A stretch of 64,000 nucleotides of DNA from Methyloversatilis sp. (GTDB lineage: Bacteria; Pseudomonadota; Gammaproteobacteria; Burkholderiales; Rhodocyclaceae). Location of the stretch: contig NZ_JAUYNV010000016.1 of assembly GCF_030698125.1 (NCBI RefSeq), positions 62,001 through 126,000 of the forward strand, read 5' to 3'. This document shows positions 31,780 through 41,926 of this stretch, one piece after another; the first letter of the stretch is position 1; each line of letters opens with the position of its first letter. Made by a program: the position numbers and the translations under genes. The notes below the pieces were generated by a model. That model made no database searches, had not been told where the DNA came from, and saw only the letters and a list, made by a program, of their open reading frames with translations.

Positions 31780-33663
<1,884 letters not shown>

Positions 33664-33745
33664 GGGGAACACGGGAAGTGGAGCGGCGCCGCAGTATATC
33701 GCCGCACCGCAGCAAGCCGGTCACCCGGGTACAATCGCGGCCGCC

Positions 33746-33820
33746 GGCTCCATAGTTGAATGGATACAACAACCCCCTCCTAAGGGGTAGGTACAGGTTC
33801 GATTCCTGTTGGGGCCACCA
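33746..33820 (+). tRNA. tRNA-Arg (anticodon CCU)
   Basis: Cloverleaf folded by hand. The acceptor stem GGCTCCA pairs with TGGGGCC. The D stem is GTTG/CAAC, the anticodon stem ACCCC/GGGGT with loop CTCCTAA (anticodon CCU), and the T stem ACAGG/CCTGT with loop TTCGATT. The 3' CCA is encoded (33818-33820). An integrase gene begins 165 bp downstream, so this is the attachment site of an integrated element. Confidence 0.95.
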
Positions 33821-33954
33821 AGAGGGCATCCAAGGAAGTCCAAGCAAGTCCAACCAAGTACAGAAGCAAGCCGTTTCAGAGCGAAAAGCAGTCCAGATTA
33901 GTCCGAAGTGCTTCATTGACAGCCGGGGGCATGTGGGGGCAGCATCAGGGGCAT
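33807..33954. other. left attachment end with candidate integrase arm sites
   Basis: The tRNA 3' end (TGTTGGGGCCACCA, 33807-33820) is the presumed core. Beyond it lie four AGTCC boxes (33837, 33847, 33890, 33900). Next come GGGGGCAT (33925), GGGGGCAG (33935) and GGGGCAT (33948). The same GGGGGCAT pair recurs near the right end at 39401 and 39413, as expected for integrase arm-binding sites. Confidence 0.6.
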
Positions 33955-33984
33955 CGTTAAACATGCCTTGAAAAGGTGCCCCCA

Positions 33985-35205
33985 ATGGCTGCAACAAACA
34001 AGCTTACAGACCGCGCGATCATCAACGCCAAGCCCAAAGCGAAGCCCTATAAGCTTTCAGACGGCGAAGGCATGTATCTGGAGGTCGCGCCCAATGGGGG
34101 CAAGCTGTGGCGGATCAAGTACCGCTTTGGGGGCAAGGAGAAGCGCCTGTCGCTGGGTGTGTATGGCGACGTGACCCTTACGATGGCGCGCGAGCGGCGC
34201 ACAGCGGCACGCACGCTGCTGGCGCAAGGCATCGACCCGAGCACGCAGCGCAAGGCAGACAAGGCCGCAGAGGCCACCAAGCACGCAAACTCGTTTCAGG
34301 CGGTGGCGACCGAGTGGTTCGCCAAGAAGTCGCCAGCATGGGCACCTTCACACGCCGACCGGCTGCTGCGCCGTCTTGAGCGCGACATCTTCCCGGTCAT
34401 CGGCGCAATGCCGATATCCGACATCACCCCGCCGATCCTGCTGGAAGCAATCCGGAAGATCGAAGCGCGCGGTGTAGGCGAAACAGCGCACCGCGCAATG
34501 CGCGATTGCAGCCAGATATGCCGGTACGCCATCGCGACAGGCCGGCTGTCGAGTGATCCGGCGCGCGATCTTCGCGGCGCGTTGTCCTCCGTCAAGGCTG
34601 TGCATTTCCCCGCTGTTACCGAGCCCCGACAAGCCGCGCCCCTGATCCGTGCAATCTACGGCTATGAAGGCTCGTTGATCGTGCGCAGCGCGCTACGCCT
34701 TGCCCCGCTCGTTTTCGTCCGTCCGGGCGAGCTGCGCACCGCTAAGTGGGCAGACATCGACCTGGAGGCGGCGGAATGGCGTTTCCTTGTCACCAAGACC
34801 GACACGCAGCACGTCGTGCCCCTCGCGACGCAGGCCGTCGAAATCCTGCGCGCGATCAAACCCGTGACGGGCGACGGGCAATACGTTTTCCCGAGCGCGC
34901 GCGCTGGTAATCGCCCGATGTCGGATAACGCGATTCTGGTGGCGCTGCGCACGCTGGGTATCGGCAAGGAAGTAATGACCGGGCACGGCTTCCGGGCGAT
35001 GGCGCGCACGATGCTGGACGAAATCCTAGGCGAGCGTCCCGATCTGATCGAGCACCAGCTGGCGCACGCAGTGCGCGACGCAAATGGTCGTGCGTACAAC
35101 CGGACCGCGCACCTGTCGGAGCGGCGGCGGATGATGCAGCGATGGGCAGACTATTTGGACAGCCTACGGACGGGGGCGGATGTCATCGCGTTTCGGGCGG
35201 CCTGA
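33985..35205 (+). CDS. int: P4-type tyrosine recombinase (integrase)
   Basis: The 406-residue site-specific recombinase has the N-terminal DUF4102-type arm-binding domain (LTDRAIINAKPKAKPYKLSDGEGMYLEV, then KLWRIKYRFGGKEKRLSLGVYGDVTL). A core-binding domain follows, then the catalytic domain. Catalytic residues visible are Arg in VRPGELRTAKW, His-x-x-Arg in GHGFRAMARTM, and Tyr in GRAYNRTAHLSERRRMMQRWADYL. ATG at 33985 has AAAAGG eight bases upstream; GTG at 33976 is an alternative. It reads away from the tRNA-Arg. Confidence 0.95.
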   Translation: MAATNKLTDRAIINAKPKAKPYKLSDGEGMYLEVAPNGGKLWRIKYRFGGKEKRLSLGVYGDVTLTMARERRTAARTLLAQGIDPSTQRKADKAAEATKHANSFQAVATEWFAKKSPAWAPSHADRLLRRLERDIFPVIGAMPISDITPPILLEAIRKIEARGVGETAHRAMRDCSQICRYAIATGRLSSDPARDLRGALSSVKAVHFPAVTEPRQAAPLIRAIYGYEGSLIVRSALRLAPLVFVRPGELRTAKWADIDLEAAEWRFLVTKTDTQHVVPLATQAVEILRAIKPVTGDGQYVFPSARAGNRPMSDNAILVALRTLGIGKEVMTGHGFRAMARTMLDEILGERPDLIEHQLAHAVRDANGRAYNRTAHLSERRRMMQRWADYLDSLRTGADVIAFRAA

Positions 35206-35310
35206 GCCCGGCGCAACAAGGCGCGCATTGATGATGAACGAGTGGGCGAAGTTCTGCGCACGGGTGCGTTCAGATGCTGATGTCGTGGCGCTCATCGGTC
35301 GCGCTGCTAC

Positions 35311-35338
35311 TTGACTAGATCGATTCGGACACTACAAT
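35311..35338 (+). promoter_or_regulatory. sigma70 promoter of the element's main operon
   Basis: TTGACT (35311-35316) and TACAAT (35333-35338) have a 16-base spacer, the best promoter match in the element. Transcription would start near 35345 and run through the structured leader towards alpA. Confidence 0.65.
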
Positions 35339-35344
35339 CCTTTT

Positions 35345-35513
35345 CATCGGTAGTACTTCAGCGTATCGATCCCGCCCGGAGCGCGGACAGACTCCGGTAC
35401 CGCACAGGTTGCCAAGGCTTTCCCCTTCCTTGGGTCCTGTGAAGCACGGTAGGCATGTAAGCCCTTAAAAACGGTGGGCCAAAGGTGGGCGCTTTGTTGC
35501 GCTCGCCTTTTTT
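35345..35513 (+). ncRNA. structured leader RNA ending in an intrinsic terminator (C4/CI-like candidate)
   Basis: The 342-bp gap between int and alpA holds no gene but is highly structured. Hairpin 1 is CCGGAG/CTCCGG (35376-35397). Hairpin 2 is CACAGG/CCTGTG enclosing CCAAGG/CCTTGG (35403-35441). The last hairpin, GGTGGGCGC/GCGCTCGCC (35484-35507) with two G-T pairs, is followed by TTTTTT. GGTGGGC also occurs upstream at 35473-35479. A discrete RNA of about 170 nt would be made, with alpA expressed only on read-through. P4 CI RNA and phage C4 antisense RNA have this position and logic; membership in either family is inferred. Confidence 0.55.
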
Positions 35514-35547
35514 CGTTTACGGCGGCGCGACCCAATTGGAGTCCATC

Positions 35548-35766
35548 ATGCACGCTGGTTTTTTACGCCTTCCCCACATCATCGGGGATACCGAGAAGCG
35601 CATATCGCCGCTCATCCCTGTGAGTCGATCGACGTGGTACGCAGGCGTCGCCAGCGGTCGTTACCCGAAACCAATCAAGCTGTCCGAGGGTGTGACCGTC
35701 TGGCGCGCGTCCGATATCGACGCACTCTGTGCCCAGATCGAGCAGCAAGCGGAGGTGACGATATGA
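35548..35766 (+). CDS. alpA: AlpA-family transcriptional regulator
   Basis: This 72-residue winged-helix DNA-binding protein has the AlpA/MerR-like pattern FLRLPHII...LIPVSRSTWYAGVASGRYPKPIKLSEGVTVWRASDIDALCAQI. AlpA-type proteins are excisionases or activators in P4-like elements and gram-negative PICIs. ATG at 35548 follows GGAG and lies 34 bp after a terminator. The gene overlaps the next one by ATGA, so the operon is translationally coupled. Confidence 0.9.
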   Translation: MHAGFLRLPHIIGDTEKRISPLIPVSRSTWYAGVASGRYPKPIKLSEGVTVWRASDIDALCAQIEQQAEVTI

Positions 35767-36413
35767 GCACCGCACCCCAAGACATCGCCGATCCGCTGGA
35801 CGACTATGCACTCGGCCTTGAAGGTCTGAGCCCAGATGAAAAACGCACCCTGTGCGAACTGGCCGAGTGCCTGATATGGGCCGACCGGGTTCCTTTCGTG
35901 CGTGCACTGATCGAAGTCTTTCAGGAACATGGCCCAGACCTTACCGATGACCGTGGCTGGTCTGACCTTCAAGGGTGGAAAGGCTGGGTGCTTGGCGAGC
36001 AGCTGGCCCGGGCAGCAGGATTGCCCCATAACCTGAGCGACCCGAACCTGCACTGCTGCCAACCCGAGCAGATGGAGTTTCTGCTGCGCCGCTTATCTGG
36101 TGCCCATTCGTTCCACTGCGAGACAGTCGAAGAGACCGCCTTCACCAGGATGCTGTACCTGCTGATCGCTTGCAGGCTCTTTGAACTGTTCAGAACGCTG
36201 CCCTTTGCGAAAGCCTTGGATGAAGCATGGATCATCGGCATCCAGTGCATCCATCACTACGGGTTTACCAAATCACAGCAGCGGTGGCGACTCGAAGCAC
36301 TCCGGGACCTGATCGCATGGTTTCGCGACACAGACGGGTTTCACCGACCCGACGGGAGCATCGACAGCGAAGCGGCGGCCATGCGTGCCTACCTGCGGGG
36401 AGATTTTGAATGA
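35763..36413 (+). CDS. hypothetical protein of the integrated element
   Basis: The 216-residue protein is predicted to be soluble and mostly helical, with an acidic N-terminus. No domain is recognised. It overlaps alpA by 4 bp at its start and the ATPase gene by 4 bp at its end, so it belongs to the same translated unit as the replication functions. A role in replication initiation or control is suggested only by position. Confidence 0.75.
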   Translation: MSTAPQDIADPLDDYALGLEGLSPDEKRTLCELAECLIWADRVPFVRALIEVFQEHGPDLTDDRGWSDLQGWKGWVLGEQLARAAGLPHNLSDPNLHCCQPEQMEFLLRRLSGAHSFHCETVEETAFTRMLYLLIACRLFELFRTLPFAKALDEAWIIGIQCIHHYGFTKSQQRWRLEALRDLIAWFRDTDGFHRPDGSIDSEAAAMRAYLRGDFE

Positions 36414-37603
36414 ACCCCATCGAACCTCAATTCGAACCCCTGGACCCCGTCCAGATCCGAGCAGTGACCCAAGAATTCGAGGATCGGCGATACAACCGGA
36501 TCGCGGAGCGACTCGGTGCCCAGCGAATACCCGTCACGCTCGCACCTGCTCAACCTGAGCAGCGCTACAAGCTGCGCAGCGCAGACGAATTGCTCCACGC
36601 CAAGCCCATCGCATGGCGCGTCAAGGGGGTGCTACCCGAACAAGGCATCGGGGCGATCTTCGGGCCGTCCGGCTGTGGGAAATCGTTTTTGGCCATCGAC
36701 CTGGCGATGCGCATCGCGAAGGGCGGCGACTGGTTCGGGCATAAGGTGAAACGCTACCCGGTGCTCTATATCTGTCTCGAAGGTGAAGCGGGCCTGTCGG
36801 TGCGCGTCAAAGCCTACAGCGCAGTGAACGGACCCATCCCGCGCGGCATTGACTTCATCGACCAGCCCCTGAACCTGCTGAGCTCGACCGATGTGCGCGA
36901 TCTGGTCGCCGTCATTACGGACCGGGCTGTGCCTCACGGTGTGGTCATCATCGACACCCTCAACCGGGCGACACCGGGGGCAGACGAGAACAGTTCCGTC
37001 GACATGGGGCAGGCGGTGGCAGCGGCGAAGGCTGTGCAGACCGCTATCGGCGGAATGGTGCTACTGGTTCACCACACCGGCAAGGACGCATCCAAAGGCT
37101 TGCGGGGTCACTCCAGCCTACATGCAGCGCTCGATGCGGCCATTGAGGTGACTCGCGCAGGTGACTCGCGCGAATGGTCTGTCGCGAAGTCGAAGGACGG
37201 TGCGGACGGTCTGGGCCACCAGTTCAAACTGGAGGTGGTCGACCTGGGACTCGACGGGGATGGTGACGTGATCACCTCCTGCGTGGTCAAAGCCGGACCA
37301 GCTGGCCTGAAGGTCAAACCCTTGACCGCGCCCCAGCAGGTCGGCATGCACGCTTTCACAGAAGCGGCCCTGCACAACGCCCCCACCCCCGACGATCAGC
37401 GGGTGCGCGCCAGCCTGGACGAGTGGAGGGAGGCCTTTTATCGGCGCAGCGTGGCGACCCCCGAGAACAAGCAGAGGGCGTTTCACCGAGCGCGGACGGA
37501 CCTCCTGGCTCTTGGAAAAGTTCGAGAGGTTGACGGCTTTTTCGTGTTGGTCAACGAACCGGAAGAACCCAGCGGGTTTGACGGGTTCCCTGATCTCACA
37601 TAG
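36410..37603 (+). CDS. RepA-like AAA ATPase / replicative helicase
   Basis: The 397-residue protein belongs to the RecA-fold AAA_25/RepA group of hexameric helicases found in plasmids and satellites. Walker A is GPSGCGKSFLAIDLA near residue 83, Walker B is HGVVIIDTLNRA near 180, and the sensor region is MVLLVHHTGKDASKGLRGHSSLHAALDAAIEV. The C-terminal 90 residues (DDQRVRASLDEWREAFYRR...FHRARTDLLALGKV) look like a winged-helix DNA-binding domain. It probably drives element replication. Confidence 0.85.
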   Translation: MNPIEPQFEPLDPVQIRAVTQEFEDRRYNRIAERLGAQRIPVTLAPAQPEQRYKLRSADELLHAKPIAWRVKGVLPEQGIGAIFGPSGCGKSFLAIDLAMRIAKGGDWFGHKVKRYPVLYICLEGEAGLSVRVKAYSAVNGPIPRGIDFIDQPLNLLSSTDVRDLVAVITDRAVPHGVVIIDTLNRATPGADENSSVDMGQAVAAAKAVQTAIGGMVLLVHHTGKDASKGLRGHSSLHAALDAAIEVTRAGDSREWSVAKSKDGADGLGHQFKLEVVDLGLDGDGDVITSCVVKAGPAGLKVKPLTAPQQVGMHAFTEAALHNAPTPDDQRVRASLDEWREAFYRRSVATPENKQRAFHRARTDLLALGKVREVDGFFVLVNEPEEPSGFDGFPDLT

Positions 37604-37621
37604 CCCAATGGGGCGGACAGA

Positions 37622-37708
37622 CCAGACAAAGCCAGACATTGTCCGGTTTGTCTGGGCAGGACAACCAGACGGACACGGACACGACTCTAACGAGTGTCCG
37701 TGTCCGTC
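37622..37708. repeat. two adjacent hairpins made of GACA-type repeats
   Basis: CCAGACAAA (37622-37630) pairs with TTTGTCTGG (37647-37655). GACGGACACGGACAC (37668-37682) pairs perfectly over 15 bp with GTGTCCGTGTCCGTC (37694-37708) around an 11-base loop. The 157-bp gap is saturated with GGACA/TGTCC and CAGAC/GTCTG words. It lies between the helicase and the terminase-like gene and could be an iteron-type origin, a packaging site, or an attenuator. Confidence 0.75.
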
Positions 37709-37760
37709 CGCTCTTTTCTGTCCGCTGTCCTGATTCACTGAAACAGTTTAGGAGTACCCA

Positions 37761-38225
37761 ATGGGCAGACCAGTTACGTACGACAAATCAAAAATCTGGC
37801 CCGAGATCACCAGACGAATCGCGAACGGCGAAAGTCTCGCTTCAGCACTTCGCCATCCTGGCATGCCGAGCTACGAACTCGCACGGAACCAGATTCGCGA
37901 GTTCCCCGAGATCAAAGCGGCTTACGAGGCCGCTGTGGAAGATCGAGGGGCGATGTTGGCCGAGGAACTGATCGATCTAGCCGATACTCCGATACCTGAG
38001 GACCTCGACCCCGCCAGCCGGTCCGCGTGGGTGCAGCACCTACGGGTTCGACTGGACACCCGAAAATGGATCGCGTCGCGGGTCTACCGCAAGGTCTACG
38101 GCGACAAGGTCGAGGTGTCGGTATCGGCCCCGGTGGACCTTGTCGCGGCGATGGAGGAGGGGCGGCGACGGGTGGAGGCTAATCGAGCCCGAACCATCGA
38201 CATGGGGGACGTCGAGCGCGCGTGA
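37761..38225 (+). CDS. terminase small subunit-like protein
   Basis: The 154-residue protein has the pattern of phage small-terminase DNA-recognition proteins. An N-terminal helix-turn-helix (ITRRIANGESLASALRHPGMPSYELARNQIREFPEIKAAYEAA) is followed by a helical segment ending HLRVRLDTRKWIASRVYRKVYGDKVEVSV, a block typical of the family. No large terminase or portal gene follows. In PICIs an autonomous TerS redirects the helper phage's packaging machine to the island. ATG at 37761 follows AGGAG. Confidence 0.8.
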   Translation: MGRPVTYDKSKIWPEITRRIANGESLASALRHPGMPSYELARNQIREFPEIKAAYEAAVEDRGAMLAEELIDLADTPIPEDLDPASRSAWVQHLRVRLDTRKWIASRVYRKVYGDKVEVSVSAPVDLVAAMEEGRRRVEANRARTIDMGDVERA

Positions 38226-38313
38226 GAAGGTATTAACAGGGCTGGGGGTCTTTCGGGCTTGTTGCGCAGACCACCGACCCCAGCGCCCCCAGCGCAGCCC
38301 CTGCCATCACGCC

Positions 38314-38751
38314 ATGCTCTCCTTTAGTTCCTTGTTCCGTGTCGCCAGCACCGCCACCCTCGCACTGGTGCTGTCCGCCCCAATAGGCGCCCACGCATCA
38401 ACCATCGTGGGCCGTGTGGTCGGTGTGGCCGATGGGGACACGGTGACGGTGCTCGATTCCGACCGGGTACAGCACAGAATTCGACTCGCTGGCATCGATG
38501 CACCCGAGAAGGCGCAGGCATTCGGCAACCGGTCGAAGGAGAGCTTGTCGGAGTTGGTGTTCTCCAAGGCCGTGACCGTGGAGACCGACAAGGTGGACCG
38601 CTTCGGGCGAGCAGTCGGCAAGGTGCTGGTCGATGGCAGAGACGCGAACCTGATTCAGGTCGAGAGGGGCTTCGCGTGGCACTTCAAAGCCTATGAGTCC
38701 GAGCAGTCACCTAGTGACCGGCTGCTGTACGACGCGGCTAGTTCGTTTTGA
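38314..38751 (+). CDS. secreted staphylococcal-nuclease-like (SNase/TNase) protein, shortened C-terminus
   Basis: The 145-residue protein has a Sec signal peptide (LFRVASTATLALVLSAPIGAHA). An SNase fold follows: IVGRVVGVADGDTVTVLDSDRVQHRIRLAGIDAPEKAQAFG, then KVDRFGRAVGKVLVDGRDANLIQVERGFAWHFKAY. The catalytic Arg and acidic residues of RIRLAGIDAPE and the second Arg of DRFGR are present. The usual C-terminal helix with ARxxxxGLW is missing; the protein ends PSDRLLYDAASSF. The 3' end overlaps the convergent membrane-protein gene by 14 bp. It is element cargo or a packaging-associated gene. Confidence 0.85.
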   Translation: MLSFSSLFRVASTATLALVLSAPIGAHASTIVGRVVGVADGDTVTVLDSDRVQHRIRLAGIDAPEKAQAFGNRSKESLSELVFSKAVTVETDKVDRFGRAVGKVLVDGRDANLIQVERGFAWHFKAYESEQSPSDRLLYDAASSF

Positions 38752-39130
38752 AGCCGGCAAAGGCCCATGCCAGCAGCTTGAATATCATGATCAAGACCAG
38801 CAACAGGGCAGCCGGGACGGCAAGAACCAGGATTACGGCTAGCTCGACGCTCGCCTTCGCCTTCTCTGGATCAACCACCTTCTCCGCGTCCGGGAACTGC
38901 TCCCAAAAAGCCCGGTCTTGGCATTCTTTAGTCGTGCAGTCTTTGTTCTTCCTCTGGAATTCTTCCTTTTGCCGTTGCACAACCTTCTCGACGCTCCAGT
39001 GCGTCGAACCGAGATACGTCATCACTTCACGGAGGCTACCGACAAGCGACGCAATCGCAAGCAGCATCCAAAATACCAGATAAAGCCGAAGCAGTCCCTT
39101 ACCAATATTGAGCTTTCCAAATAGCATCAT
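38738..39130 (-). CDS. small membrane protein of the integrated element
   Basis: The 130-residue protein has two membrane helices, LRLYLVFWMLLAIASLVGSL near the N-terminus and ELAVILVLAVPAALLLVLIMIF near the C-terminus. They flank a charged central part with two cysteines (CTTKECQDRAFWEQF). Codon use and GC content are visibly lower than the backbone, which suggests transfer. It converges on and overlaps the nuclease gene by 14 bp. No family is recognised; two-helix proteins are common as phage-defence effectors or exclusion proteins, but nothing here proves that. Confidence 0.7.
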   Translation of the reverse strand: MMLFGKLNIGKGLLRLYLVFWMLLAIASLVGSLREVMTYLGSTHWSVEKVVQRQKEEFQRKNKDCTTKECQDRAFWEQFPDAEKVVDPEKAKASVELAVILVLAVPAALLLVLIMIFKLLAWAFAGFKTN

Positions 39131-39727
39131 TCAGGTCCATGGTGAGGCGGCGGCATCGCATAGACACCACTCCCAAATTTCCGAAATTTTCCAAAATTTT
39201 TTCGCAGTGTCCCCGCTACCTCCCCGGACAACATTCCCGTGGAGACGTGGGGCGTCCCCCCCCCTCCGGTCGCGAAAGCCGGGGAACATCACTCGAAATG
39301 GATTCTAGCGCCCTAGATGCAGACCGAGTGCTTGAGGGTCTGCCTGACTGAAGAGATACGCGATGGCGTAACGAGGGAGACTACTTCGTTCGACCAGTGC
39401 GGGGGCATCTTTGGGGGCATGTCGGAGCAGTCCGAGCAGCCGCCCCTGGCCCGCAAGCCGTTGTGCGCAATCCTTCGGTAGATGTTGGGCCACCAGCACC
39501 GTCCACTTCCCGCTTCCTCCGGACTTTCGCGTCTGCCGTTGAAGCCGGTGAGGCGAGCAGCGCGACGGCGTGTCGCGGGTGACCCAGCGGCGAGGTGATG
39601 TCGCGCTGCTGGCCGACGAAGGTGATGAGCCTGAATGCGGTCAACCAGACCGCAATGTCGACCGGCGAGGTCGAGCTTTTCTGAGCGAAGGGGACCTGCC
39701 CTTGGGGGCAGGAGTGGGGCCGGCGGC
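39131..39727. other. 597-bp non-coding right end of the element; candidate attR
   Basis: No convincing gene is present. It starts AT-rich, with repeated AAATTT/AAAATTTT words (39174-39201), then a C-run. GGGGGCAT occurs twice (39401-39408 and 39413-39420), matching the left arm sites, beside AGTCCGAGCAG (39429). TGTTGGGCCACCA (39483-39495) equals the tRNA 3' end with one G missing and is the candidate attR. Beyond about 39500 composition returns to the backbone, up to the relA stop at 39728. Confidence 0.45.
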
Positions 39728-41926
39728 TCAGCCGCGCCGCGCCTCGACCACGCCGTCGACATCGCGCAGCAGCGTCAAAATTTTCTGGATCTGGCCGACG
39801 CTCGATATTTCGACCGTGAAGCTCATGCGCGCCATGTCTGCCTTCGAGATGGTGCTCACGGCTGTCACGTTGATGCGCTCTCGCGACAGCAGTTCTGAAA
39901 TGTCGCGCAGCAAACCCTGCCGGTCGTGCGCCTCGACGAGCAGGTCAGCGGCGAAGCGCGATTCCGGATCCTGGCTGGCAATTTCACCCCACTGCGCGTC
40001 GACCACCCGTTCCGGGTTGCGCGCCACCATGTTTATATAGTTGGGGCAGTCGCTGCGATGGACCGCGACGCCGCGCCCGCGCGTGACGAAGCCTGAAATC
40101 GGGTCCGGCGGAGCCGGCTTGCAGCAGCGGCCGAGCTGGGTCAGCAGCTTGCCGACACCTTCCACCAGCACGCCGCGCTCGCCCACGGCGCGCGGTGCGC
40201 GCGGCTTGATCAGCGGTTCTTCCGGCAGTGGCTCTTCACCCTTGAGCGCGACATGAATCGCGCGCGGTCCGACCTCGCCGTGCGCGCACGCGATCAGCAT
40301 GGCGTCGACGCTGTTGTAGCCCAGCTTCTGCGCCAGTTCGTCCAGATTGGTCTGCGTCGCCCCTTCGCGTGACAGCTCGCGCGCGAGCCAGGTGCGGCCC
40401 TGCGCCAGCGTTTCGCCTTCCTCGATCTGCGCGAACCAGCGCCGTACCTTCACGCGCGCCTGATGGGTCGCGATATAGCTCTGCTGCGGATTCAGCCAGT
40501 CGCGCGACGGACCCCCCTGCTTGGCGGCGATGATTTCCACCCGCTGGCCGTTGTCGAGCGGCGTATTGAGCGGCACCAGTTGACCATTGACGCGCGCACC
40601 CCGGCAGCGGTGGCCCAGATCGGTGTGCAGCCGGTAGGCGAAGTCGATCGGCGTTGCCCCCTGCGGCAGGTCGATCACCTTGCCCTGCGGCGTCAGCACG
40701 TACAGCGTGTCGTCGAGTGCGGCACGCTTGAACTGTTCCACCCATTCAGAATGGTCGGCGATTTCATCACGCCACGACAGCAGCTGGCGCAGCCAGGCGA
40801 TCTTGTCGTCGTAGTCCTTGTCCTGGCCCGAACCTTCCTTGTAACGCCAGTGCGCCGCCACGCCCATCTCGGCGTGCTGGTGCATCTCGCGCGTGCGGAT
40901 CTGCACCTCGAGCGAGCGGCCGTCCGGCGCCACGACGGCGGTGTGCAGCGAGCGGTAGTTGTTGCCCTTCGGGTGCGCGATGTAGTCGTCGAATTCACGC
41001 GGCAGCGGTTGCCACAACTGGTGCACCACGCCCAGCGCGGCGTAGCAGTCGCGCACCTCGTCGACCAGCACGCGCAGCGCGCGCACGTCGTACACCTCGG
41101 CGAACTCGATGCGCTTGGCGCGCATCTTGTTCCAGATGCTGTAGATGTGCTTCGGCCGGCCCTGGATTTCCGCCTTGATGCCGGCGCCGGCCAGTTCGGC
41201 CCGCAGCCGCGCCATCGAATCGGCGATGAAGGCTTCACGTTCGACGCGCTTCTCATCGAGCTGCCTGGCGATGCGCTTGTAGGTTTCCGGTTCGAGAAAG
41301 CGGAAGGACAGGTCTTCCAGCTCCCATTTCAGCTGCCACACGCCGAGCCGGTTGGCGAGCGGCGCATAGATGTCGAGCGATTCGCGCGCCATGTCGATGC
41401 GCTGCTCGTTCGGATTGACCGTGAGCCAGCGCAGGCTCTGCACGCGCGACGCCAGTCGCAGCATGACGACACGTACGTCCGCCACCATGGCCAGCACCAT
41501 CTTGCGCAGCACTTCGGCCTGGTTTCCGATCTCTGCACCGGTCGTGCTCTTGGTGGCATGCGACCGGGTGATCAGGCGCAGATGATCGAGCCGCTGCAGG
41601 CCGGACACCAACTCGCTGACCGACTGGCCGTACTGTTCGGCAATCTGCTGATCGGCGTCGTCGATGACTTCGTGCAGCGGAAACAGCAACGCCGCCAGTC
41701 GGGTTTCGAGGTCGAGCCGCAGCGAGGCGCAGATCAGCGCCTGACCCACCACATGTTCGTGCATCGGTTCGCCGGTGCCGAGCGTGCGGCCGGCGTACAG
41801 CGTCGCCACGCGGTCGTGGGCGGCCCGCAATGTGGCGGCCTCGGCGTCACCCAGACCGTCGGCCAGCAGTTCGAGTGTGTTGCGGGCAGTGTCTGCGCTG
41901 ACGAGGGAATGGACGACGGAAACCAT
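39728..41926 (-). CDS. relA: GTP pyrophosphokinase RelA
   Basis: This ribosome-associated (p)ppGpp synthetase of the stringent response has 732 residues. The N-terminal HD region is degenerate (AALLFPLHEVIDDADQQIAEQYG), as in monofunctional RelA. The synthetase region contains GRPKHIYSIWNKMRAKRIEFAEVYDVRALRVLV and KGNNYRSLHTAVVAPDGRSLEVQIRT. A TGS domain (LYVLTPQGKVIDLPQGATPIDFAYRLHTDLGHRC) and a C-terminal ACT domain follow. It ends at the right boundary of the integrated element. Confidence 0.96.
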   Translation of the reverse strand: MVSVVHSLVSADTARNTLELLADGLGDAEAATLRAAHDRVATLYAGRTLGTGEPMHEHVVGQALICASLRLDLETRLAALLFPLHEVIDDADQQIAEQYGQSVSELVSGLQRLDHLRLITRSHATKSTTGAEIGNQAEVLRKMVLAMVADVRVVMLRLASRVQSLRWLTVNPNEQRIDMARESLDIYAPLANRLGVWQLKWELEDLSFRFLEPETYKRIARQLDEKRVEREAFIADSMARLRAELAGAGIKAEIQGRPKHIYSIWNKMRAKRIEFAEVYDVRALRVLVDEVRDCYAALGVVHQLWQPLPREFDDYIAHPKGNNYRSLHTAVVAPDGRSLEVQIRTREMHQHAEMGVAAHWRYKEGSGQDKDYDDKIAWLRQLLSWRDEIADHSEWVEQFKRAALDDTLYVLTPQGKVIDLPQGATPIDFAYRLHTDLGHRCRGARVNGQLVPLNTPLDNGQRVEIIAAKQGGPSRDWLNPQQSYIATHQARVKVRRWFAQIEEGETLAQGRTWLARELSREGATQTNLDELAQKLGYNSVDAMLIACAHGEVGPRAIHVALKGEEPLPEEPLIKPRAPRAVGERGVLVEGVGKLLTQLGRCCKPAPPDPISGFVTRGRGVAVHRSDCPNYINMVARNPERVVDAQWGEIASQDPESRFAADLLVEAHDRQGLLRDISELLSRERINVTAVSTISKADMARMSFTVEISSVGQIQKILTLLRDVDGVVEARRG

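What the first reader, a model, noticed from the sequence alone, without database searches (positions are those of the whole stretch)
33746..39495. Compact tRNA-Arg-integrated element with phage-satellite (PICI/P4-like) layout
Seen: integrase, promoter plus structured leader, alpA, hypothetical, RepA-like ATPase, paired hairpins, TerS-like gene, secreted nuclease and membrane protein in about 5.7 kb, with no capsid, tail, portal or large terminase. Known: gram-negative PICIs and P4 carry int, alpA and rep functions, and some encode TerS to hijack helper packaging. Inference: this is an undescribed betaproteobacterial satellite that replicates and diverts packaging of a helper phage.
Basis: partly seen in the sequence, partly recalled or inferred. 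Interest (0 to 1): 0.9.

Follow-up and report, generated by a model that had tools for sequence, protein, structure and literature searches.

The report
Minimal phage satellite with own TerS
A 5.7-kb DNA element sits in a bacterial tRNA gene and carries little more than what it seems to need to jump out, copy itself and mark its DNA for packing into another virus's particles; related elements, one of them found as a free circle, suggest that it belongs to a small family of virus parasites.

Summary
Between tRNA-Arg(CCT) and a decayed copy of its 3' end lies a 5,675-bp element (33821-39495): integrase, alpA, orphan gene, RepA-like ATPase, paired hairpins, Sf6-type small terminase (TerS), nuclease, membrane ORF; no TerL, portal or capsid gene was found. 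Two same-genus genomes show the empty site. Seven further TerS of the same clade were found, none with TerL or portal in the DNA held (three loci are partial). Four have int-alpA-rep-TerS; three of these are bounded by tRNA-Ser repeats, and one (L115) is a circular 5,612-bp contig with its ends joined. The eight TerS form one clade (100/99), joined (100/100) to TerS of viral contigs that mostly carry TerL and Sf6/P22-type portals. Replication modules differ while TerS stays; one pair shows purifying selection. Best reading: TerS-carrying minimal satellites that divert packaging by such podoviruses, probably as concatemers in full-size heads. Induction, packaging and helper are inferred; no resident helper was found. 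The hairpins go with rep genes rather than TerS: a candidate origin. New variant of a known kind.

The parts
33746..33820 (+). tRNA-Arg(CCT), integration target; attL core at its 3' end (33807-33820)
   Evidence: ARAGORN, Rfam, repeat search
33925..33954 (.). cluster of three GGGG(G)CA[TG] direct repeats, candidate integrase arm sites, left end
   Evidence: pattern scan; repeat D9 pairs it with 39413; role inferred
33976..35205 (+). tyrosine integrase, 409 aa, with an N-terminal arm-binding domain
   Evidence: Pfam PF00589/PF22022/PF13356
35311..35338 (+). promoter-like site TTGACT-16-TACAAT upstream of alpA
   Evidence: scan, not above chance by number
35481..35510 (+). terminator-like 12-bp hairpin plus T-run in the alpA leader; possible attenuator
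   Evidence: scan, RNA fold; role inferred
35548..35766 (+). alpA, 72-aa regulator/excisionase-like
   Evidence: PF05930 4.8e-5, phrog_2790
35763..36413 (+). orphan protein, 216 aa, overlaps alpA stop and repA start by 4 bases each
   Evidence: no family
36410..37603 (+). RepA-like AAA_25 ATPase, 397 aa
   Evidence: PF13481 2.7e-36; RepA 1g8y 5.9e-7
37613..37725 (.). paired hairpins (37622-37655 and 37668-37708) inside an outer stem; candidate replication origin
   Evidence: fold z -9.1; hairpins after rep genes in loci without TerS; role inferred
37761..38225 (+). TerS, Sf6 gp1-type small terminase, 154 aa
   Evidence: PF20901 5.8e-24, PDB 4dzp by profile 4.5e-17, Foldseek 3hef E 7.3e-6
38314..38751 (+). 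SNase-type nuclease with an N-terminal signal-peptide-like stretch, C-terminally short
   Evidence: PF00565 2.9e-17, profile 1-91 of 107; signal-like stretch judged by eye
38738..39130 (-). membrane-protein-like ORF, 130 aa, cargo
   Evidence: translation, judged by eye; no family over a cut-off
39401..39420 (.). two GGGGGCAT direct repeats, candidate arm sites, right end
   Evidence: role inferred
39483..39495 (+). attR: displaced tRNA 3' end, one G shorter
   Evidence: following flank close to the post-tRNA sequence of L076/L077

Best explanation
The element is an integrated phage satellite of a small, mainly betaproteobacterial family marked by a private Sf6-type TerS. Proposed cycle: a helper podovirus infects and alpA is switched on (inferred). 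Integrase excises the element as a circle (a circular contig is seen for a relative; the trigger is inferred). The RepA-like protein starts replication at the paired-hairpin region and concatemers form (inferred). The satellite's TerS binds a pac site on the satellite DNA with its own N-terminal domain and hands it, through the conserved central domain, to the helper's TerL (inferred). Headful packaging then fills full-size helper heads with about 6-7 tandem copies (37.6 kb / 5.7 kb; inferred). The particle injects the DNA and the element integrates at tRNA-Arg(CCT) (integration shown by sequence). The SNase and membrane ORF are cargo.
For: Att sites with matching empty-site flanks in two relatives. 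Relatives: 7 loci from one scan of genome contigs, which are 6 different elements or remnants because L066 and L067 hold the same 10,029 bases, and L115 from IMG/VR. Int-alpA-rep-TerS in the window, L064, L066 and L068 and L115. L064, L066 and L068 have a tRNA-Ser at one end and a direct repeat of 14-19 bp at the other. L115 has an exact 123-nt terminal repeat, hence a 5,612-bp circle, and carries within about 200 nt the two repeat sets that lie at opposite ends of L064, with TGGCGG between them. TerS tree of 40 rows: 8 of 8 satellite TerS on one side of a branch, 100/99, joined with 9 TerS of viral contigs at 100/100; 8 of those 9 contigs show TerL, and the ninth (L147) holds 52 nt downstream of TerS. 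No TerL or portal in the window, L064-L070 or L115 with 24 phage queries. Of 80 IMG/VR loci kept, 71 have TerL or portal; the other 9, L115 included, hold under 3.5 kb downstream of TerS. TerS dN/dS 0.13 for L065-L068. Satellite-to-phage identity is 0.29 in TerS residues 1-50 against 0.58 in 51-118. Replication modules differ (AAA_25, D5_N/PriCT_2, DUF3987, RepB_primase/DUF5906) while TerS is PF20901 in all 7 tested.
Against: No particle, induction or transfer data. No pac site was identified. attR has lost one G and the SNase gene is short, so this copy may be ageing. No resident helper: one PF20901 match in the genome, which is this one; a weak phrog_2 (TerL) match at 3.5e-4, whose 19-kb surroundings gave no match with the queries used; no phrog_156 portal; no L138-type TerL at 1e-15; no PF03237 or PF04860. 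L069 has TerS without int or rep found; L065 (1.6 kb held downstream of TerS) and L070 (19 nt held downstream) cannot exclude TerL. Two TerS loci outside the satellite clade, L106 and L108 (3.3 kb each), also show no TerL or portal with these queries, so lack of a match is not unique to the clade. The L068 alpA gave no Pfam match at 0.01 and rests on phmmer to the window alpA (1.4e-20). L064 has no hairpin after its rep gene. The terminal repeat of L115 could come from any circular or concatemeric molecule and does not show packaging. The N-domain contrast is between two clades and is not a functional test; other TerS pairs were saturated for dS.
Confidence: 0.77

Rival explanations
1. A decayed prophage that has kept int, alpA, rep and terS by chance after losing its late genes.
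For: Rep followed by TerS is also the order in phage-type loci (L138, L143, L112), the SNase is short, and attR has lost a base.
Against: The same compact set recurs in different elements at different tRNA genes with replication genes of different families, TerS is one clade and constrained in the pair that could be measured, and a relative exists as a complete circle without late genes.
Confidence: 0.07
2. An integrative element that moves by other means (natural uptake, mobilisation, generalised transduction), with TerS serving to interfere with incoming phages (a decoy or dominant-negative TerS) rather than to package the element.
For: No packaging shown; the central domain is conserved while the N-terminal domain differs, which also fits a dominant-negative subunit; another member carries caspase-like cargo.
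Against: No mobilisation gene among the family matches of the window element. The N-terminal domain is itself conserved within the satellites (0.53), as expected if it binds a specific DNA site. TerS of some SaPIs directs packaging of the island (PMC6092414, passages).
Confidence: 0.13
3. A satellite, but of long-tailed or unrelated phages: the podovirus link reflects only the origin of its TerS. (This shares the satellite part of the best explanation and overlaps with it.)
For: TerS and TerL can be exchanged between phage types (recalled). The joint clade is with viral contigs of unknown host, and no helper is named for any member.
Against: The TerS residues 51-118 stay at 58% identity to this phage group, and a phage of the group is binned with a genome of the same order (G137, L206).
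Confidence: 0.3

Closest known systems
PICI (phage-inducible chromosomal islands; EcCICFT073 type and TerS-coding SaPIs)
   Same: int, alpA (Gram-negative type), replication gene, TerS in some members (PMC6092414, passages).
   Different: 5.7 kb against an average of 9.5 kb (PMC10803314, passages); no capsid-size or interference gene recognised; EcCICFT073 lacks TerS and uses cos, and proteobacterial PICIs are said to use Rpp on the phage TerS (PMC10690885, passages), whereas here TerS is the constant gene and of Sf6 type.
PICMI (Vibrionaceae minimalist islands)
   Same: Core functions int, alpA and replication; about 6 kb; no capsid-remodelling gene; DUF3987/DUF5906-type replication genes, as in L068, L065, L066 and L070 (PMC10803314, passages).
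   Different: PICMI sits at fis and no terS homologue was found in it; this family sits in tRNA-Arg/Ser and carries its own TerS.
P4-like satellites
   Same: AlpA/Vis-type regulator, integrase and replication protein.
   Different: No Sid, Psu or Delta family among the matches; own TerS instead. P4 gene set recalled, not taken from a call.
cf-PICI
   Same: Codes for packaging specificity.
   Different: cf-PICIs bring capsid, portal and both terminase subunits (PMC10690885, passages); only TerS here.
Sf6 gp1-type small terminases / DSL-LC05-like phages
   Same: Fold and sequence of TerS; 100/100 joint clade with TerS of viral contigs whose TerL resembles that of DSL-LC05.
   Different: Satellite TerS form their own clade, diverged most in the N-terminal domain, and no TerL was found next door.

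Membership tests
Phage satellite (general) | integrates site-specifically and can excise | tested here: inconclusive
   integration: att sites and empty-site flanks, met. Excision: only a circular contig of a relative, L115, with joined ends; excision of the window copy itself was not tested.
Phage satellite (general) | lacks genes to form its own particles | tested here: met
   no TerL, portal, coat or other late gene with 24 queries; TerL or portal found by them in 6 of 7 phage control loci; family scans of the seven element ORFs
Phage satellite (general) | is induced and packaged by a helper phage | not testable with these tools
   needs infection experiments
PICI | int - regulator (alpA) - replication - packaging gene order | tested here: met
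   window, L064, L066, L068 (in L068 other genes lie between int and alpA), L115
PICI | capsid redirection or helper-interference genes (e.g. cpm, ppi, rpp) | tested here: inconclusive
   none recognised by Pfam, PHROGs, NCBIfam; the orphan 216-aa gene and small cargo could hide one
PICI | sequence relation of int, alpA, rep or terS to PICI genes | not tested
   no PICI reference sequences were fetched
PICMI | integration next to fis | tested here: not met
   integration in tRNA-Arg(CCT); relatives with a tRNA in tRNA-Ser
PICMI | no terS | tested here: not met
   TerS present; feature
P4-like | sid/psu/delta and cos-type dependence on P2 | tested here: not met
   no such family among the matches; cos not tested; definition recalled
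cf-PICI | own capsid and both terminase subunits | tested here: not met
   definition
Sf6-type TerS (PF20901) | profile over the cut-off and Sf6 gp1 fold | tested here: met
   84.6 bits against a cut-off of 27; 4dzp 4.5e-17; AlphaFold model pLDDT 76, pTM 0.54, Foldseek 3hef E 7.3e-6, TMt 0.60

The most novel reading that the evidence does not exclude
A separate satellite family exists, mainly in betaproteobacteria, whose only constant gene beside int and alpA is a TerS taken once from the lineage of metagenomic podoviruses with Sf6/P22-type portals and kept since. Its replication modules are swapped freely, and it needs no capsid remodelling because it packs concatemers headful into full-size heads. 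At 5.6-5.7 kb its smallest members would undercut PICMI115 (6,110 bp; [quoted passage not shown]
Probability: 0.55. Interest if true: 0.75.

Novelty: new variant of a known kind. Interest (0 to 1): 0.62.

Why it matters
The passages read name Firmicutes, Enterobacteriaceae and other gammaproteobacteria as the main known carriers of satellites. This family points to satellites of environmental betaproteobacteria parasitising podoviruses, and suggests that owning a TerS, rather than a given replication system or site, can mark a satellite lineage. It gives a clear test: which TerL can a satellite TerS work with? It also offers a very small, self-specified packaging cassette whose N-terminal domain appears to have diverged from the phage's while the central part was kept.

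Tried and rejected
Decayed-prophage reading: rejected on recurrence, TerS clade, constraint and the circular relative. Hairpins as pac site: rejected as the first choice, because strong hairpins follow rep genes in loci where no TerS was found. In one search, 11 of 23 rep loci have their best inverted repeat right after rep within the top 5% of windows of the same locus (nine of these 11 without TerS); 12 do not, among them the TerS carriers L064, L065, L068 and L070. Structured-leader riboswitch: whole leader z = -1.5, no Rfam match at gathering score in 33000-40000 except the tRNA. Resident helper: none found; these cover some but not all terminase and portal families. Defence function of the cargo: PADLOC gave a weak SNase-domain match for the window (1.1e-5) and caspase matches for two L066 proteins. 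RepA search (29 of 399 genomes): I fetched stretches round 17 of its hits; none of these showed TerS by phmmer, and I did not classify each locus. A further TerS scan of IMG/VR with a narrow alignment added no further satellite. A paper with a general satellite census is not held, so earlier in-silico detection of such elements under a general PICI model cannot be excluded. Literature searches; no listed title or abstract start describes a betaproteobacterial TerS satellite of this kind, in an open-licence library only.

Rows dropped before counts: 103 TerS were cut to 40 at 80% identity, and TerS shorter than 110 aa were left out; L067 (same element as L066) and L043 (same contig as L065) were not counted as separate elements; of 350 IMG/VR matches only the best 80 were returned.
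Full report
WHAT IS THERE. The finding's element is real and its borders can be stated closely. A tRNA-Arg(CCT) gene lies at 33746-33820. The motif TGTTGGGG?CCACCA occurs twice in the 64-kb window, at the end of that tRNA (33807) and at 39483. In relatives of the same genus the tRNA is intact: L077 and L076 continue directly after the tRNA with a sequence close to the one that in the window follows 39495; L075 has the tRNA but differs just after it. So an element of 5,675 bp (33821-39495) was inserted at the 3' end of the tRNA, its own copy restored the gene, and the displaced copy at the right has since lost one G. In L075 and L077 about 1.2 kb lies between tRNA and the next matching flank that the window lacks. 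GC is 60.9% against 66.3% and 67.2% in the flanks. Short GGGGGCAT-type repeats sit near both ends, as integrase arm sites would (inferred).

GENES. Family scans give integrase, AlpA, an orphan, an AAA_25 ATPase with phmmer similarity to the RepA of 1g8y (RSF1010 RepA by recall), an Sf6-type TerS and an SNase; the last ORF, on the other strand, is membrane-like and has no family over a cut-off. alpA, the orphan and rep overlap by 4 bases each, so they look like one operon. TerS matches solved Sf6 gp1 by profile (4.5e-17), and its AlphaFold model (mean pLDDT 76, 7 sequences) finds Sf6 gp1 as the only hits at E of 0.001 or less (six chains). With 24 phage queries (from Sf6, DSL-LC05, L138, L111 and L112) the window and the loci L064-L070 and L115 match only the TerS query and, in the window, L064 and L115, the rep query. 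As controls, the same queries find TerL or portal in six of seven phage loci; the seventh (L109) matched TerS alone in that run, its TerL having been found with another query. Against this, two short TerS loci outside the clade, L106 and L108, also showed TerS alone.

RELATIVES. A profile of two TerS scanned against genome contigs gave 7 loci at 46-68% identity. L064 (Oxalobacteraceae MAG), L066 (Oxalobacteraceae MAG; the same 10,029 bases recur in L067, a MAG labelled Sphingomonadales) and L068 (beta proteobacterium MAG) are bounded elements: integrase, alpA, a replication gene, TerS and other genes, a tRNA-Ser at one end and a 14-19-bp copy of its 3' end at the other. Sizes are about 6.5, 9.9 and 10.4 kb. 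Ten of their cargo proteins gave no PHROG of known function. L065 (rep-TerS on a 3.6-kb contig), L070 (int, rep and TerS; the contig ends 19 nt after TerS; labelled Rhizobium) and L069 (TerS near tRNA-Ser, no int or rep seen; Nitrotoga) are partial or remnants. A scan of IMG/VR with seven TerS gave L115: 5,735 bp with an exact 123-nt terminal repeat, so a 5,612-bp circle, with integrase, alpA, a RepA-like protein, a small protein, TerS and two small ORFs. Repeats that lie at the two opposite ends of L064 lie about 200 nt apart in L115, with TGGCGG (the complement of a tRNA CCGCCA end) between them, read by eye in that output. L115 is thus best read as the excised circle, or a unit of a concatemer, of a close relative. 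In whole genomes of the same order the family is rare: with the TerS profile 10 of 399 genomes matched at 1e-12; only the own genome and G062 (its contig is that of L065) fall in the satellite clade, while the nine other matches fall outside it.

ONE TERS, SEVERAL REPLICATION MODULES. The replication genes are not one family: AAA_25 in the window and L064, D5_N/PriCT_2/DUF5906 in L066, DUF3987 in L068 and L065, RepB_primase/DUF5906 in L070. TerS is PF20901 in the window and the six relatives scanned. A tree of 40 TerS puts the eight satellite proteins on one side of a branch with support 100/99, and joins them at 100/100 with nine TerS from viral contigs; eight of the nine contigs show TerL, five of them portal too, and the ninth, L147, ends 52 nt after TerS. 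In L138, a member of this phage type, a primase-helicase is followed by TerS, TerL and a portal of phrog_156. Of the 80 IMG/VR loci kept, 71 have TerL or portal by these queries, and the other nine, L115 among them, hold less than 3.5 kb downstream of TerS. The best match of the L138 TerL among annotated phage records is Phage DSL-LC05 (72.5%), a 37,569-bp genome from a Dishui Lake water sample, metagenome-assembled by the title of its paper (PMC10611076, search listing). A phage of this type sits on an 18.9-kb contig of a genome of the same order (L206 of G137). TerS evolves under constraint in the one pair close enough to measure (dN/dS 0.13; other pairs are saturated). Between satellites and phages the first 50 residues share 29% identity and residues 51-118 share 58%; within the satellites 53% and 70%, within the phages 49% and 81%. 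In Sf6 gp1 the first part binds DNA and the rest makes the ring and meets TerL (recalled), so the pattern fits a protein that kept its partner and changed its DNA site.

HAIRPINS. The paired hairpins 37613-37725 are beyond chance. Similar hairpins follow the rep gene in loci where no TerS was found (L046, L048, L049, L052, L053, L056, L060, L062). Their arms consist of repeated words that differ from locus to locus, often with a tip near CCCTATAGGG (read by eye). In 11 of 23 rep loci the best inverted repeat of the 250 nt after rep is in the top 5% of windows of its locus; in 12 it is not, and in L064 and L070 it is unremarkable. They are therefore more likely tied to replication, perhaps the origin, than to packaging. 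No pac site could be pointed out.

MECHANISM. Shown by sequence: site-specific integration, the circular form of a relative, a conserved TerS without TerL. Inferred: induction through alpA by an incoming phage, replication from the hairpin region, TerS-directed headful packaging by the helper's TerL, concatemers in full-size heads (37.6/5.7 = 6.6 copies). The own genome shows no convincing helper by the six searches made, so the helper would be an infecting phage, as for PICMI (PMC10803314, passages).

PLACE AMONG KNOWN THINGS. In layout it is like a Gram-negative PICI with terS, in size and content like a PICMI with a TerS added. PICMI's own definition (fis site, no terS) is not met; P4 and cf-PICI definitions are not met. 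Whether it counts as a PICI depends on how widely that term is used; sequence relation to PICI genes was not tested. [quoted passage not shown] I call it a new variant of a known kind.

Noticed in passing
L046 (before 9093), L048 (before 8802), L049 (before 9299), L052 (after 10545), L053 9309-9354, L056 8961-9006, L060 9214-9262, L062 6759-6802; window 37613-37725: Hairpins, often paired, directly after AAA_25/RepA-type rep genes: arms built of tandem words that differ from locus to locus (CCCGAAA, CACAAA, GTCTCAAC, GAACGAACAC, GGACAC and others) while the tip is often CCCTATAGGG-like. Could be a replication origin whose words co-evolve with the Rep protein.
   Followed up: partly
L068 4394-4438 and 7881-8000: Two similar hairpin regions (CAAAACC words) flank the alpA-rep block, one upstream of alpA and one between rep and terS.
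   Followed up: no
window 35481-35510: A 12-bp terminator-like hairpin lies between the putative promoter and alpA, which would suit conditional antitermination of alpA by a helper.
   Followed up: no
window 38738-38751: The SNase gene ends early (profile 1-91 of 107) where it overlaps the oppositely oriented membrane-like ORF, as if that ORF had replaced its 3' end.
   Followed up: no
window 39520-39554: About 1.2 kb present right of this tRNA in same-genus relatives L075 and L077 is absent in the window next to attR.
   Followed up: partly
L066 8580-12193: The tRNA-Ser element of an Oxalobacteraceae MAG carries two caspase-like proteins as cargo (PADLOC caspase 1.6e-10 and 1.4e-10).
   Followed up: no
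L066 3067-13095 and L067 152-10180: The same 10,029 bases without a mismatch in MAGs labelled Oxalobacteraceae and Sphingomonadales: mis-binning or very recent transfer.
   Followed up: partly
L064 3759-3777 and 3900-3913: Two partial copies of the tRNA-Ser end at the left border, as if two elements had integrated one after the other.
   Followed up: no
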